Source of the DNA: Flavobacteriales bacterium
Lineage (GTDB): Bacteria > Bacteroidota > Bacteroidia > UBA10329
NCBI GenBank assembly: GCA_021739695.1
Contig: JAIPBM010000003.1
Coordinates: 1 to 64,000 of the forward strand
Direction of reading: 5' to 3'
Length of the DNA stretch: 64,000 nt
The notes beneath the pieces were generated by a model that did not search any database, had not been told where the DNA came from, and was given only the letters and a program-made list of their open reading frames with translations. The position numbers were made by a program, and so were the translations under genes. This document shows positions 58,173 through 63,675 of this stretch, piece by piece. Each line of letters starts with the position of its first letter. The first letter of the stretch is position 1.

Positions 58173-58673
58173 TTAATCCGACAAGTAGAAGTGCGTGATG
58201 ATCAAGGATAGGGCATCAAACAAGCCTTGATTGTAATCCTCAGCATCCCAGGCCTTACGTTCTTTTGGCAATCGATGTCGATACTCCTTCATGTACTTGC
58301 CGATGACATGAGCAATTTGAAACTTCGATTTTGCTTCACCATCAAATTCAGAGAATACCATTCGGATTTGTTCACGATTGTATCGTGCAACTTGAATGTG
58401 TTCTTGAGTCGCAAACTTTTGAATAACCCGTGTGAGTTGTTTAACACGTGATGATTTATACGAATTCTTTCCTTGAAGATGTTGAAGGACTATATGCGTG
58501 GGTTCATACTTTGCAATGAGAGTGGTAATCCTTTCGAGCGCTTTTGAATTATTAGGGGGGACAATTCGGACAACTCCACAATCAATTGGTTCCCTTGGAC
58601 TTCGCACGACTGCATATCCGAATCCTATACTGTTTGGATATATGGCCAATGTGAGACCGTGTTTGGAAGTCAT
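58173..58673 (-). CDS. RuvC-like protein lacking canonical acidic residues
   Basis: A 166-aa protein with the size and strand order of a RuvC/RNase H fold: LTLAIYPNSIGFGYAVV at the front, HIVLQHLQGK after ~60 residues and AEDYNQGLFDALSLIITHF at the end. In RuvC these places are IDPG, an E in the second strand, and the last Asp pair. Here the first Asp is Tyr and the second Glu is Gln, while a DAED/FDAL region remains. I recall similar YPN-type proteins in Bacteroidota mobile elements. It may bind branched DNA without normal cutting. It overlaps the XRE gene by 4 bp. Confidence 0.65.
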   Translation of the reverse strand: MTSKHGLTLAIYPNSIGFGYAVVRSPREPIDCGVVRIVPPNNSKALERITTLIAKYEPTHIVLQHLQGKNSYKSSRVKQLTRVIQKFATQEHIQVARYNREQIRMVFSEFDGEAKSKFQIAHVIGKYMKEYRHRLPKERKAWDAEDYNQGLFDALSLIITHFYLSD

Positions 58674-59014
58674 GGTCGGTCAGAACTAAGATTTCTAAGA
58701 AATTGGAGAAGGAAGGCGATTCGTTCAGCTCCTTTTGGTGTGAGTTGCTCTTTTTCAAGTTGAGCTACGAGTGGTTTAATGCGAGAGGCGATACGGCTTT
58801 GAACGGTCGTGCGTTGATCGACAAAAAATTCACTCACTGCTGCGCCAAAAAGCAGATGGTATGCAATGAGAATTTCAATCGTCACTTGACGTTCGCCATT
58901 CTCGCAACGGGAGATGAATGAATTGTCAGTGTGGTTTAATAAAAAGGCAAGGTCGGCCTGAGTGAGATTGGATTGCTTCCGGTGCATGCGTAACGTGTTG
59001 AATGGTTTTTTCAT
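58670..59014 (-). CDS. XRE-family transcriptional regulator
   Basis: A 114-aa protein. Residues 5-65 form a classic XRE/Cro helix-turn-helix: LRMHRKQSNLTQADLAFLLN and NSFISRCENGERQVTIEILI. A short charged C-terminal helix follows. It is coupled to the RuvC-like gene by a 4-bp ATGA overlap. The region upstream (59015-59305) has several inverted repeats that could be its operators. It probably represses element genes until induction. Confidence 0.88.
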   Translation of the reverse strand: MKKPFNTLRMHRKQSNLTQADLAFLLNHTDNSFISRCENGERQVTIEILIAYHLLFGAAVSEFFVDQRTTVQSRIASRIKPLVAQLEKEQLTPKGAERIAFLLQFLRNLSSDRP

Positions 59015-59085
59015 AAAAACATGTTCGTTGATGAACTAATAATGTTTATATGATACTAAATGGGTTTAGAGGTAATAGAAGTTAG

Positions 59086-59106
59086 AATATGTCTGATTGA
59101 CATATT
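59086..59106. repeat. 8-bp perfect inverted repeat (possible operator)
   Basis: AATATGTC (59086-59093) and GACATATT (59099-59106) with a 5-nt gap, followed by TTTT. It lies upstream of the XRE gene and could be an operator or a weak plus-strand terminator. Confidence 0.5.
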
Positions 59107-59229
59107 TTTTCGGTGGTTGTGCACGTGATGTGGATAACCTCGATTGTAGTGGTCGGAGACTATTTATGTTTATGGAAAGAAGAAAAATTGTTTCTCAATT
59201 TTTCATCATAGGTATGTGCACACGTCACC

Positions 59230-59257
59230 CTTAGTTGGTGTGGAACACCAAACTAAG
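59230..59257. repeat. Hairpin in the regulator-replication gap
   Basis: CTTAGTTGGTGT and ACACCAAACTAAG pair along 12 bp with a single bulged base and a 3-nt loop. It lies just downstream (minus strand) of the replication-type gene, so it may be that gene's terminator, or part of an origin. Confidence 0.5.
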
Positions 59258-59305
59258 TCTGCCATGTACACATCCCCGTGAGAGTTGAACATTGCAGTGT
59301 GATAT

Positions 59306-59785
59306 TCATGTATACAATCGTTTTAGAATATCCTTGATGCTTTGAAGGCTCTTTGTAATATTTTCTTTTGTAGGATTAGTTTTGTCTTGTACAAGTAACC
59401 TGACACCTTTCCTCCTACTAACCTTACAAGTCATGTTAAATTGCTTTAAATCTTCTGTTCGCCCAAGTGCGTAGAACAGCTTTGATTTACCTTTTCTCTC
59501 TGAAGGTGTGTTGGTAGCATTTCCTTTGAAGTCAGTGATGGAAATCAACTTCAAATTGCTTAAGGTTTGAAGCGTTGAAGAAATAGTTTGCCTTGTTAGT
59601 CCAGTTTTTAGCACAAATTGACTTTGACTGATCCAATCACGATTCTTTCGTTGACCATTTGAAAGTGCCCATCCATTCGTTTGGCGGATTATGACCAGAA
59701 CGACTTTGAGTTCCGCCATGGTTAAGTGGGGAAGCATTTGATCCAACATGATGTTTGGAACTGGGGTTGTGCGTTTTAAGCTCAT
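59306..59785 (-). CDS. Winged-helix replication-type protein (RepO/replisome organiser-like)
   Basis: A 159-aa protein. Residues 1-100 read VPNIMLDQMLPHLTMAELKV, VVLVIIRQTNGW, KNRDWISQSQFVLKTGLTRQ and TISSTLQTLSNLKLISI, the order found in phage replication protein O and plasmid replisome organisers that begin with a winged helix. The C-terminal part is basic and helical. It probably helps replicate the excised element or loads a helicase. It has no helicase partner nearby. The gene is divergent from the recombinase unit, with an 11-bp inverted repeat between them. Confidence 0.72.
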   Translation of the reverse strand: MSLKRTTPVPNIMLDQMLPHLTMAELKVVLVIIRQTNGWALSNGQRKNRDWISQSQFVLKTGLTRQTISSTLQTLSNLKLISITDFKGNATNTPSERKGKSKLFYALGRTEDLKQFNMTCKVSRRKGVRLLVQDKTNPTKENITKSLQSIKDILKRLYT

Positions 59786-59815: not shown

Positions 59816-59864
59816 AACAGAAGTGAAATTATGCTCAATCGGCTGTCATATTCTCACTTCTGTT
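59816..59864. repeat. 11-bp inverted repeat between Rep-like and recombinase units
   Basis: AACAGAAGTGA (59816-59826) matches the reverse complement TCACTTCTGTT (59854-59864) exactly, with 27 bp between. The 49-bp span is about the size of a serine-integrase attachment site, but it could also be an operator for the two divergent units. Confidence 0.55.
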
Positions 59865-59895: not shown

Positions 59896-60060
59896 ATGTG
59901 TGAAAGATGTCAAAACAATCTAGGGGGAAAATCCAGAAACAAAACTGTGGGATCTGGGCCCGATTTGAAGGTCCAATATGTTACGATTCAAGATGAGGAT
60001 GCAGAGGCTAAAATCAACCGTGCATTTGACATTCTCTTTAAATCTTTGGAGAATTTATGA
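59896..60060 (+). CDS. Small ORF coupled to the serine recombinase
   Basis: A 54-aa ORF that starts at ATG 59896 and ends in the ATGA shared with the recombinase start. The N-terminus has a CxxC pair (MCERCQNN), followed by a Gly/Lys linker and then PDLKVQYVTIQDEDAEAKINR and AFDILFKSLENL, a strand-then-helix unit. A homolog lies at 63255-63386: LKVxYVxxQ, then a charged stretch, then INRAFDxLF is shared. Conservation at two places and the exact coupling argue that it is real. Function unknown; a recombinase partner or directionality factor is possible. Confidence 0.72.
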   Translation: MCERCQNNLGGKSRNKTVGSGPDLKVQYVTIQDEDAEAKINRAFDILFKSLENL

Positions 60061-61793
60061 ATCAAGAAACCTCACAATTCAAGAAACTTGTTGCCGTATA
60101 TGGTAGAGTTTCAACTTCGACTCAAGAGAATGAAGGAACCATTGAAACACAACTATTGGCAGTTCGAGAACATGCTGAAAAACATGGCTATTCTATTGTA
60201 CGAGAGTACTTGGATGAAGGATGGAGCGGAGACACGCTAGTGAGACCCAACCTCGACCAGCTTAGGATGGATGCTAAGAAAAAGCTTTGGGAAGCAGTTT
60301 TAATATTTGACCCTGATAGACTTGCACGAAGATTCTCGTACCAAGAATTGGTGTCTGATGAGCTTCGCGAAGCTGGAATCGAAGTGATGTTCGTTACCAC
60401 TCCAACTCCAACCAATAGTGAAGACAGAATCCTCTTTGGAGTAAAGGGTTTGTTTGCAGAATATGAACGGTCAAAAATTGCTGAGCGCTTTCGACTTGGA
60501 AAAGTTCGAAAAGCCAAAGAAGGTCATATTATCGCAAGTGAAGCTCCGTATGGATATACCTATGTCGCTCGAAAAGGGAACAAAGGTGAATCTGGTTTTA
60601 AGGAAGGGTACTATGAAGTCAATGAGGTAGAAGCAAGTGTTGTCAAAAGCATTTTCTCTTGGGTGGCTGATGACAGACTTAGTCTTCGAGCAGTCATTGG
60701 CAAACTAAAGGATTTAGGTATTCCTCCGCGGAAGAGTAAACGAGGTGTTTGGAGCACGAGTACCCTGAGCAACATGTTCAAAAACCGAACCTATATTGGA
60801 GAGGGATTTTATGGAAAACACTATGGAGTTGTTCCAGAAAACCCTACGAGTAAAAACGTATATAGGAAGATAAAAAAGACCAGCAGGAAACAGAGACCGG
60901 AGGAGGATTGGATCAGTATTCCTACTCCTCAAATAATTCCTGAAAAGTTGTTCAATCGAGCTTCAAAGAGGTTGCAAAAGAATTTCGAACAGTCAATTCG
61001 CAACACTAAAAATGAATACTTACTCTCGGGAAGAATCTGGTGTACTTGTGACTCACGGAGAACTGGTGAAGGTCCGCAGAATGGCAAGTACCTCTATTAC
61101 CGATGCTCTAACAGGATTAATAACTTTCCCTTACCTCCTACTTGCTTGGAAGGGGGAATTAATGCCAGAATTGCCGACAAGTTGGTATGGAACGAGATAA
61201 GCCAACTTATGTCATCTCCCTCTTTACTGTTTAAACAGGCTGAACGATTTTATGTTGAACCAAACCGCGAAGTCACTGGTCCGACAATCAACATTCAAGC
61301 TACTCAAGCTGAGATTACCAAATTGAAAGAACGAGAAGCACGATTTACCAATGCGTATGGCGATGGGGTTCTTTCGATTGAAAAATTTAAAGAACTCGTT
61401 TTGCCAGTTAGAGAAAGGGCTGCCATTCTTGAAAATCAAGTCTCGAAAGCCAAGGACGAAGTCCAGCCCAAGGCAAAACAATCTCTACCGAATTACTCTG
61501 ACATTGAAGAGTTCACAAACGTGATCTCAAATCGTTTAGGTGACTTGAGTTTTGATGATAAAAAAGCTATCCTAGATGACACAACTTGTAAAATTGTCGG
61601 CACACAAGAAGGTTTACTTATTAGCGGTTATATATCAATACAAAATCATGTCGAGTACTGTTCTATCTATAGGTATGACACGAACGCAATCAAGCACACT
61701 AAGGATAGTAAAAATATAATCTCATTTAAGATTGAGTTGTCGTTACCACCACCACTTCAGAGGGGAGTTGATTATGGTTTTATTAAAAAATAA
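60057..61793 (+). CDS. Large serine recombinase
   Basis: A 578-aa site-specific recombinase. The resolvase domain starts AVYGRVSTSTQENEGTIE with catalytic Ser19, and DPDRLARRF and EYERSKIAERF follow. A recombinase domain (APYGYTYVARKG, VWSTSTLSNMFKNRTYIGEG) begins near 160. A zinc-ribbon-like part near 325-370 has WCTCDSRR, YYRCSNR and TCLEGG cysteines. A coiled-coil and C-terminal beta end (LPPPLQRGVDYGF) close it. It is translationally coupled to the small ORF upstream. It should integrate or excise a DNA segment with simple att sites. A decayed copy of its C-terminus lies at 63529-63675. Confidence 0.93.
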   Translation: MNQETSQFKKLVAVYGRVSTSTQENEGTIETQLLAVREHAEKHGYSIVREYLDEGWSGDTLVRPNLDQLRMDAKKKLWEAVLIFDPDRLARRFSYQELVSDELREAGIEVMFVTTPTPTNSEDRILFGVKGLFAEYERSKIAERFRLGKVRKAKEGHIIASEAPYGYTYVARKGNKGESGFKEGYYEVNEVEASVVKSIFSWVADDRLSLRAVIGKLKDLGIPPRKSKRGVWSTSTLSNMFKNRTYIGEGFYGKHYGVVPENPTSKNVYRKIKKTSRKQRPEEDWISIPTPQIIPEKLFNRASKRLQKNFEQSIRNTKNEYLLSGRIWCTCDSRRTGEGPQNGKYLYYRCSNRINNFPLPPTCLEGGINARIADKLVWNEISQLMSSPSLLFKQAERFYVEPNREVTGPTINIQATQAEITKLKEREARFTNAYGDGVLSIEKFKELVLPVRERAAILENQVSKAKDEVQPKAKQSLPNYSDIEEFTNVISNRLGDLSFDDKKAILDDTTCKIVGTQEGLLISGYISIQNHVEYCSIYRYDTNAIKHTKDSKNIISFKIELSLPPPLQRGVDYGFIKK

Positions 61794-61890
61794 TCCTATG
61801 GAAAATATAGAATCCCCACATGACAGCCTCCTCCTAACGTAATTGGTTGATGTATTTATGCTTTACCTGATTTTATGTATAATCATGTAT

Positions 61891-62580
61891 ATGGAGAAAC
61901 TACAACAACCAGAAAGAACCCCAGAGATTATTCTCGAGGAGATTAATAAAATAAAAGAAGACCTCAAAAGTCCAGACATTACCCTTGAAGGATCAGAGGG
62001 GAGACTTTCTTACTTATTGGATGTTATAGGTACATATGAAAATCTCAAGGATATCCCTATACATATAAAAATAGAGTATGGTGCTCTTGAAGATAAGGGT
62101 GTGGATAGTTTTTTGGTAAAAGAGAAAAAAAGAATTCAAAAAGAATTAAAAGATAATATCGATAAACTAAACAAGGAGCTAGATTCTTTTGCCAAGGAAC
62201 AAGAAGAACAGGAGATCGATGATAGGGAAGTTTTGTTTGAAAAATTGAATTCCGAGGTTAAGAGAGTTCAAGAGGTAGTAGCTAATGCGTATGACAAAGT
62301 AAGCCCCCTTATTGATCGTGTTGAAAATTATAAGAATGAAAATGGGTCAACAGGTAATGAAAGGTTGGATATAAAAGCAGCCTTACTCTTATTGCCGGAT
62401 GCAGAAGATGATTACTATAAATATCATAGGATTATTGAAAAAACAGAAGGCCCACTTTCTGAACTACAGGCAATCCTGGATAAGGTAAAAGATGCCGTGG
62501 ATAATGATAAAGGAATAGGGTATGCAGAAAGAGATTCCAAAGCTATTTTAGAAAATATAGGGAAGTATTTAGAATCATAA
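61891..62580 (+). CDS. Coiled-coil cargo protein, unknown
   Basis: Several starts are possible (TTG 61843, ATG 61885, ATG 61891); I take the ATG at 61891 (MEKLQQPERTPEIILEEINK), giving 229 aa. No signal or membrane segment then remains. The protein is strongly charged and helical, with heptad-like coiled-coil runs around 85-125 and 185-225 (KKRIQKELKDNIDKLNKELD, ILDKVKDAVDNDKG). The DNA is visibly AT-richer than the chromosomal part. It sits directly after the recombinase, where such elements usually carry cargo. No family is recognised. Confidence 0.62.
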   Translation: MEKLQQPERTPEIILEEINKIKEDLKSPDITLEGSEGRLSYLLDVIGTYENLKDIPIHIKIEYGALEDKGVDSFLVKEKKRIQKELKDNIDKLNKELDSFAKEQEEQEIDDREVLFEKLNSEVKRVQEVVANAYDKVSPLIDRVENYKNENGSTGNERLDIKAALLLLPDAEDDYYKYHRIIEKTEGPLSELQAILDKVKDAVDNDKGIGYAERDSKAILENIGKYLES

Positions 62581-62591
62581 AATACAGATAA

Positions 62592-62617
62592 AAAGCTCCA
62601 CCGATTGGTGGAGCTTT
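62592..62617. terminator. Bidirectional rho-independent terminator
   Basis: AAAGCTCCACC (62592-62602) and GGTGGAGCTTT (62607-62617) form an 11-bp stem with a GATT loop. The minus strand continues in T, so it ends the convergent lipoprotein transcript; it can also stop the coiled-coil gene. Confidence 0.8.
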
Positions 62618-62644
62618 AAAGTAAACCTTATTAGAAATAATGTG

Positions 62645-63130
62645 TTATTTACACCCTTTCTCCAGCGTTTCCAACTGATTATTCATTTGGTTAAGGATAT
62701 CTTCCATTGAGAGTATGGTAAGTTCATATTCTTCGGTGACTTCTTGAAAATCAACTAAAAATTCCTTTGTAAAGCCTTTAGATTCACTAGTCAGAAAAGT
62801 TTTCACATGATTCGTTTGCACAATTTCTGACCTCAAGGTTTGCTCTCTCACAATTTTCAAGCCAAATCTGAAAATGAGATCACTCATTTCCGAAACATCA
62901 AAACTTCCGTCTTGACTATAACAGTTCTCTGTTAATGAACTGTACTTAAGAGCACTATTCCCATATTCTTGATACAGATCAAGCCTTCTTTCAAAAAACA
63001 TTAGATATGAATCATAGGCATCGAGATACTGAGCTTCTCTTTCTTCGAGTAGGGCCGTTACTTCTTCAGATTTTTGTCCACATGATTGGAATAGGAAGGT
63101 GACGGACAGTAGGAACAATACTTTTTTCAT
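62645..63130 (-). CDS. Hypothetical lipoprotein
   Basis: A 161-aa protein with a lipoprotein signal (MKKVLFLLSVTFLFQSCGQ; lipobox FQSC). The mature part is almost all helical and charged (EEREAQYLDAYDSYLMFFER, EFLVDFQEVTEEYELTILSM). It is convergent with the coiled-coil gene and lies downstream of the minus-strand small ORF. No family is recognised; it is probably cargo of an integrated element. Confidence 0.65.
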   Translation of the reverse strand: MKKVLFLLSVTFLFQSCGQKSEEVTALLEEREAQYLDAYDSYLMFFERRLDLYQEYGNSALKYSSLTENCYSQDGSFDVSEMSDLIFRFGLKIVREQTLRSEIVQTNHVKTFLTSESKGFTKEFLVDFQEVTEEYELTILSMEDILNQMNNQLETLEKGCK

Positions 63131-63254
63131 TTTTATTGGATTTTGTGATGAACAGGGTGGTTCCCTGATTGGGTTTAACTATTTATGAGAATGCTATCAC
63201 ACACTTTATATTTTGTCAATATTCCACTTCACTAAAAAATTCAACATTTTCATA

Positions 63255-63386
63255 TTATTTATCTTCACTCATTTCTCTAAACAAAACATCAAATGCTCTA
63301 TTTATTCTCCTTTCGAACTCCAATCTTTCATCTTCATCCTTAGGTTGTACTTCCACATACGTAACCTTTAATTCTTCTGACTTCAT
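63255..63386 (-). CDS. Second copy of the recombinase-associated small ORF
   Basis: A 43-aa minus-strand ORF: MKSEELKVTYVEVQPKDED then ERLEFERRINRAFDVLFREM and a short end. It shares LKVxYVxxQ and INRAFDxLF with the 54-aa ORF at 59896, in the same order and near the C-terminus, but lacks the CxxC N-terminus. No recombinase gene follows it on the minus strand. It may be the remains of another recombinase unit in opposite orientation, or a cargo copy. Confidence 0.62.
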   Translation of the reverse strand: MKSEELKVTYVEVQPKDEDERLEFERRINRAFDVLFREMSEDK

Positions 63387-63528: not shown

Positions 63529-63675
63529 ATTTGACGTTCTATATATGGCACTATCTATAGGAACGCCCAGAACACAATCCGACACGCTGACAGTGAGAAA
63601 AACATTGTTCCTTTCGAAATCAAAGTACCGTTACCACCGCCACTTCAGCGAGGTGTCGATTATGGGTTTAAATAG
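63529..63675 (+). pseudogene. Decayed C-terminal end of a second serine recombinase
   Basis: In the frame ending at the TAG 63673-63675 the translation reads SIYGTIYRNAQNTIRHADSE, then KNIVPFEIK and VPLPPPLQRGVDYGFK. It matches the end of the recombinase at 60057-61793 (CSIYRYDTNAIKHTKDS, KNIISFKIE, LSLPPPLQRGVDYGF). A stop at 63532-63534 interrupts the frame upstream and no catalytic domain precedes it. So only the last ~45 residues of a paralog remain. Confidence 0.78.

What the first reader, a model, noticed from the sequence alone, without database searches (positions are those of the whole stretch)
59896..63386. A conserved, overlooked small protein tied to serine recombinases (two homologs)
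Two ORFs too short for usual calls, 59896-60060 (54 aa) and 63255-63386 (43 aa, minus), share LKVxYVxxQ and INRAFDxLF in the same order. The first overlaps the recombinase start by ATGA. Two conserved copies beside intact or decayed recombinases suggest a dedicated partner, perhaps a directionality factor or accessory DNA-binding protein. The N-terminal CxxC in only one copy suggests a variable front module.
Basis: partly seen in the sequence, partly recalled or inferred. Interest (0 to 1): 0.65.

Follow-up and report, generated by a model that had tools for sequence, protein, structure and literature searches.

The report
Small partner protein of serine recombinases
Next to a DNA-inserting enzyme of a mobile element sits an uncatalogued gene for a tiny protein that travels with this kind of enzyme in very different bacteria and probably steers it, most likely by switching it from inserting the element to cutting it out.

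Summary
Both small ORFs are real genes of one undescribed protein family. The 54-aa ORF (59896-60060) overlaps by 4 nt the start of a large serine recombinase (LSR, 60057-61793). A profile of 28 members finds every member when that member and its close relatives are left out, and finds both window copies when trained without them. All 25 LSR loci of this clade with enough upstream sequence (mostly Patescibacteria and Bacteroidota, one Bradyrhizobium) carry it. In 20 whole genomes all 21 hits lie in LSR operons. In 395 Bacteroidota genomes the only strong hits are the two window copies and one LSR-linked copy. Codons show purifying selection, and smORF distances track LSR distances. A possibly related set accompanies distant LSRs, including phage WO and plasmids of four phyla. 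Nothing matches Pfam, NCBIfam, PHROGs or PDB. AlphaFold gives an extended segment plus an amphipathic helix. The second copy (63255-63386, minus) is an orphan beside a 42-codon relic of another LSR's C-terminus. Best explanation: a dedicated LSR co-factor, most likely a recombination directionality factor acting by protein contact. The link is shown; the function is inferred. It has no detectable homology to SprB or TP901-1 Xis. A DNA-binding role is less likely.

The parts
59896..60060 (+). smORF copy 1 (54 aa): small LSR partner protein; conserved core residues 24-54 (LKVQYVTIQDEDAEAKINRAFDILFKSLENL)
   Evidence: 28-member family, leave-one-out HMM E 1.3e-8, 9e-9 with both window copies left out; AF2 helix 34-52
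60057..61793 (+). large serine recombinase, 578 aa (Resolvase + Recombinase + Zn ribbon), CcrB-like
   Evidence: PF00239 1.9e-29, PF07508 1.2e-18, PF13408 7e-8; NCBIfam CcrB 98 bits, far below its equivalog cut-off
63255..63386 (-). smORF copy 2 (43 aa), orphan homologue of copy 1
   Evidence: HMM E 1.1e-5 without window copies in training
63544..63669 (+). relic of the C-terminal 42 codons of a second LSR (YGTIYRNAQN...PLPPPLQRGVDYGF)
   Evidence: tblastn 59.5% identity, E 1e-11
59816..59864 (.). inverted repeat (18-nt arms, 89% complementary) in the divergent intergenic region upstream of smORF copy 1; operator or att candidate
   Evidence: not found at the same place in L090/L091
59306..59785 (-). 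divergent winged-helix/RepO-like gene of the conserved module
   Evidence: PF04492 3.4e-8; same gene in L090 and by position and sequence in L091
58670..59014 (-). HTH regulator of the conserved module
   Evidence: PF01381 8.9e-8; same position in L090, L091, L089
58173..58673 (-). RuvC-like gene of the conserved module
   Evidence: PF02075 1.9e-4, just under the Pfam cut-off; same position in L090, L091, L089

Best explanation
The small ORF encodes a dedicated protein co-factor of a large serine recombinase, in one operon with it and often overlapping its start (anatomy shown). It is most likely a recombination directionality factor (RDF). The conserved strand + amphipathic helix would dock on the recombinase C-terminal half (the zinc-ribbon/coiled-coil region where known RDFs act) and permit attL x attR synapsis (excision) while disfavouring attP x attB. 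The docking site and the direction of the effect are inferred. Copy 2 is probably the orphaned partner of a second, decayed LSR.
For: Present at 25 of 25 same-clade LSR loci with upstream sequence. 21 hits in 20 whole genomes, all in LSR operons. In 395 Bacteroidota genomes the only strong hits are the window and G177. In 287 Patescibacteria genomes all six hits lie in LSR operons or within about 7 kb of a serine recombinase match. smORF distances correlate with LSR distances (Mantel r 0.48, 0 of 5000 permutations). Purifying selection: most of the closest pairs pN/pS 0.26-0.4, 356 of 357 pairs pN<pS. It is kept when 1-3 kb away from the LSR (L068, L074, L092, L141), so it is more than a translational leader. 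It is as small as proven LSR RDFs: SprB 58 aa and TP901-1 Xis 64 aa, CD1234 72 aa, which binds its LSR (PMC5025042). Mostly acidic, no HTH.
Against: No detectable homology to SprB or TP901-1 Xis (31% of shuffles score as high; hhalign probability 1.9% for SprB). Known LSR RDF genes are usually expressed separately from the integrase, whereas this one is locked to it, which would favour constant excision unless another promoter drives the LSR alone. Ten loci have an HTH_17/excisionase-like gene just before the LSR, which could be the real RDF. No complex prediction or assay could be run.
Confidence: 0.5

Rival explanations
1. A constitutive accessory subunit of the LSR, needed for folding, synapsis or stability in both directions, not a direction switch. 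The strand would complete a sheet of the recombinase.
For: Near-invariant linkage and frequent 4-nt to 86-nt overlaps that would give co-translation. The isolated strand + helix is too small for an independent core (AF2 pLDDT 72, N-terminus disordered).
Against: Well-studied serine integrases recombine attP x attB alone (PMC4111918). The gene is separated from the LSR by 1-3 kb in some elements.
Confidence: 0.25
2. A regulator of the LSR operon or of element copy/expression, for example an anti-repressor or a partner of the divergent HTH/winged-helix proteins.
For: Divergent regulator-like genes and an inverted repeat sit just upstream. In some Patescibacteria elements it heads an operon with a primase-like gene.
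Against: The regulators are not conserved across the family whereas the LSR is. Mostly acidic, no DNA-binding fold predicted.
Confidence: 0.15
3. A translated leader that only couples or tunes LSR translation; the peptide itself has no target.
For: Overlaps of 4-86 nt with the LSR start in many loci.
Against: Amino-acid-level conservation and persistence where the gene is 1-3 kb from the LSR.
Confidence: 0.06
4. Chance ORFs or an alignment artefact.
For: No database family matches it; single-sequence search of relatives found only the two copies.
Against: Leave-one-out profiles, whole-genome specificity and pN/pS.
Confidence: 0.02

Closest known systems
SprB, RDF of SPbeta integrase SprA (58 aa)
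   Same: Size; small protein of an LSR element; similar-looking strand-then-helix layout by eye; a Holliday-junction resolvase gene lies next to it, as a RuvC-like gene does in the window module.
   Different: No significant sequence similarity. In SPbeta it lies at the attachment-site end of the prophage record, not overlapping the integrase start.
TP901-1 Xis/ORF7 (64 aa)
   Same: Small RDF of a serine integrase.
   Different: No significant similarity. Its gene lies in the divergent early operon, about 3 kb from int.
CD1234, RDF of the C. difficile skin element (72 aa)
   Same: Small, acidic (pI 5.5), acts by binding its LSR (PMC5025042).
   Different: Separately regulated from the LSR; sequence not compared here.
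HTH_17 / MerR-like excisionases
   Same: An HTH_17-type gene stands just before the LSR in ten loci (Pfam-tested in L068).
   Different: The small protein itself has no HTH and no similarity to them.

Membership tests
LSR recombination directionality factors (functional class) | Required with the integrase for attL x attR recombination | not testable with these tools
   Needs a recombination assay.
LSR recombination directionality factors (functional class) | Encoded on the same element as its LSR | tested here: met
   25/25 clade loci; all 21 hits in 20 genomes.
LSR recombination directionality factors (functional class) | Binds the LSR directly | not testable with these tools
   No complex prediction available; only co-variation of distances (Mantel r 0.48).
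SprB family | Sequence homology | tested here: not met
   HMM 0.8 bits, 624/2000 shuffles as good; hhalign probability 1.9%.
TP901-1 Xis family | Sequence homology | tested here: not met
   -0.4 bits, 631/2000 shuffles as good.
HTH-type excisionases | Winged-helix/HTH_17 fold | tested here: not met
   No Pfam match; AF2 extended segment + single helix.
The family described here (A3) | Strand-helix core with (A/V)(F/Y)D(I/L)LF, in an LSR operon | tested here: met
   Both window copies match the profile; LSR operon met for copy 1 only.
A3 and A4 (plasmid/phage WO set) as one superfamily | Significant profile similarity | tested here: inconclusive
   hhalign weak (probability 2.5%), but combined shuffle tests 3e-8 and 1.3e-6 against 0.28-0.65 for controls.

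The most novel reading that the evidence does not exclude
One ancient family of micro-proteins (A3 + A4) is the standing direction switch of the whole CcrB-like branch of large serine recombinases, from Patescibacteria and Bacteroidota to phage WO and plasmids of Pseudomonadota, Actinomycetota, Cyanobacteriota and Deinococcota. Unlike the patchwork of unrelated RDFs known so far, it has co-evolved with its enzyme and is encoded in the same operon.
Probability: 0.35. Interest if true: 0.8.

Novelty: new variant of a known kind. Interest (0 to 1): 0.62.

Why it matters
RDFs of serine integrases are hard to find because they share no sequence. [quoted passage not shown] A profile that pulls out a conserved small partner beside such enzymes makes the question testable in many systems at once. 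If it controls direction, it would also supply matched integrase/partner pairs for genome engineering. It also shows that genes of about 50 codons next to well-known enzymes are still missed by annotation.

Tried and rejected
Single-sequence searches of 148 relatives gave only the two copies plus chance hits; L015 and L029 were inspected and dismissed. Single-protein LSR scans of genome contigs and viral contigs found nothing, and the A2 viral scan gave only three distant fragments. A profile scan of viral contigs with A3 was impossible (too short). Homology to the RDFs SprB and TP901-1 Xis looked plausible by eye but failed shuffle controls. Other Bacteroidota LSRs have a different small helical ORF upstream (type C); it scores like controls against A3 and A4, so it was not merged. 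Foldseek against PDB gave no usable match for either model. Weak profile hits L134-L137 are judged false: no LSR within about 1.5 kb (L134 sits among metabolic genes). CxxC as a family feature: rejected.

Full report
OBSERVATION. The stop codon of copy 1 (59896-60060, +) overlaps the recombinase start codon in ATGA (60057-60060). The recombinase is a 578-aa large serine recombinase (LSR) with Resolvase, Recombinase and zinc-ribbon domains, loosely CcrB-like. Copy 2 (63255-63386, -) has no recombinase on its strand, but 63544-63669 (+) is a 42-codon relic of the C-terminus of a second LSR, 60% identical to the intact one.

FINDING THE FAMILY. One-sequence searches found only the two copies, so I went through the enzyme. 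A 50% identical LSR in G177 and one in G053 gave an LSR alignment. Its scan of genome contigs returned 29 loci: mostly Patescibacteria (Kaiser-, Nomura-, Wolfe-, Doudna-, Levy-, Roizmanbacteria and others), several Bacteroidota, one Bradyrhizobium, one Acidobacterium. Reading upstream of each gave, at most of them, a short ORF with the same core: a hydrophobic strand, an acidic loop, then a helix of the type L.(R/K)AFD(I/L)LFEE..K. Alignment A3 has 28 members.

IS IT REAL? With each member and everything at least 50% identical to it removed, the remaining profile still finds it among 14,253 six-frame ORFs at E 7e-5 or better, 28 of 28. Without either window copy in training, the window copies score 9e-9 and 1.1e-5. 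Codon comparisons give uncorrected pN/pS of 0.26-0.40 in most of the closest pairs (L088-L089 is 0.60), and pN<pS in 356 of 357 pairs. The codons were aligned by protein, and silent sites are near saturation, so the ratio is only indicative.

IS IT TIED TO RECOMBINASES? All 25 clade loci with enough upstream sequence have it. In two others (L070, L075) the contig starts too close to tell. The gene overlaps the LSR start by 4-86 nt, or precedes it by 8-48 nt, or by about 107-224 nt with an HTH_17/excisionase-like gene between (Pfam-tested in L068 only, 1.5e-11), or stands 1-3 kb upstream (L068, L074, L092, L141), in L068, L092 and L141 ahead of a primase-like gene. The test was then turned round by searching whole genomes with the small protein's own profile. 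Twenty genomes gave 21 hits: 19 with the LSR within the fetched 1.5-kb flank and two (L124, L125) whose LSR lies 2.8-3 kb downstream. 395 Bacteroidota genomes gave only the window and G177 as strong hits. 287 Patescibacteria genomes gave three known and three weak hits; L141 has an LSR 2.2 kb downstream, and serine recombinase matches lie about 4.5-7 kb from the other two. Distances between small proteins follow distances between LSRs (Mantel r 0.48, 0 of 5000 permutations). L096 is a second rearranged locus, with small gene and LSR N-terminus inverted relative to the rest of the LSR; it resembles the state of copy 2.

HOW FAR DOES IT GO? LSRs about 30% identical to the window's on plasmids and in Wolbachia phage WO also have a short ORF at or overlapping their start, with a V.(F/Y)E....L..AY..L core (alignment A4). 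tblastn with one of these (L111) hit nine plasmid records, all at an LSR start by annotation or position; the WO version hit four WO records at the position of the LSR start. Whether A3 and A4 are one family is not settled: hhalign is weak, but combined shuffle tests are significant in both directions (3e-8, 1.3e-6) while SPbeta small proteins and the unrelated 'type C' ORFs are not (0.28-0.65). Bacillota LSRs that I read (L105, L108, L109) lack it.

STRUCTURE AND DATABASES. AF2 gives copy 1 a disordered N-terminus, an extended segment and one helix, 34-52 (pLDDT 72). A longer Patescibacterial form has strands followed by a helix at low confidence (66). No Pfam, NCBIfam, PHROG, PDB sequence or PDB fold match. 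A3 proteins are mostly acidic (23 of 28 below pI 6), A4 proteins mostly basic.

CONTEXT. In the window, L090 and L091 the same module recurs: RuvC-like, HTH and RepO-like winged-helix genes on one strand, then divergently the small gene and the LSR; L089 has part of it. Beyond the window the same contig has a MobA/VirD2 relaxase and a VirD4-type coupling protein, so the LSR may belong to an integrative mobilizable or conjugative element. The element's ends were not mapped.

MECHANISM. Shown: family, linkage, purifying selection, gene order. Inferred: the protein works on the LSR. A pure translational leader is unlikely because the gene persists 1-3 kb away. Among protein-level roles I favour an RDF, because LSR RDFs are the known small proteins carried by LSR elements, are of this size (SprB 58 aa, TP901-1 Xis 64 aa; CD1234 72 aa, which binds its LSR and is needed only for excision, PMC5025042) and act by protein contact (PMC4111918). 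Against this, the locked co-expression is unusual, there is no sequence homology to SprB or TP901-1 Xis, and an excisionase-like gene is present in ten loci. A non-directional subunit is the main rival.

VERDICT.

Noticed in passing
63544-63669: Relic of the C-terminal end of a second LSR, about 1.9 kb downstream of the intact one, suggesting tandem accretion of elements at one site.
   Followed up: partly
59816-59864: 49-nt inverted repeat between the divergent winged-helix gene and the small ORF; absent at the same place in L090 and L091, so possibly an element-specific operator or att site.
   Followed up: partly
58173-59785: RuvC-like, HTH and RepO-like genes form a conserved block divergent from the small gene and LSR in window, L090, L091 and partly L089.
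   Followed up: partly
L147:4500-5675 (-), L147:11159-13884 (-): Beyond the window: HerA/mads_8-like ATPase (similar genes in L090, L091, L086), MobA-type relaxase and VirD4-like coupling protein.
   Followed up: partly
L033, L051, L052, L054, L055, L057, L058, L061, L062, L065, L066, L067: Other Bacteroidota LSRs carry a different small helical ORF upstream (type C, e.g. KKYTDEEVSQMRELLHLIAKINYENL). Leave-one-out profiles recover 8 of 12 at E<1e-3: a second unnamed LSR-linked small protein.
   Followed up: partly
L068:2736-7644, L092:2548-7698, L144:10832-14855: Patescibacterial elements with small gene, primase-like gene, (in L068 and L092) an HTH gene, and LSR; a DUF5659 protein in front of the small gene in L068.
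   Followed up: partly
L101, L107: Plasmid LSRs overlapped at the 3' end by a group II intron maturase-domain gene, with a CopG gene (and in L107 an RT-domain gene) upstream: possibly LSRs nested in group II introns.
   Followed up: no
L096:5992-6743: LSR split into opposite strands: small gene and LSR N-terminus on minus, downstream part on plus; inversion or assembly artefact.
   Followed up: no
61843-62580 and 62645-63130: Coiled-coil-like ORF and a small lipoprotein without clear family, between the intact LSR and the orphan small ORF.
   Followed up: no
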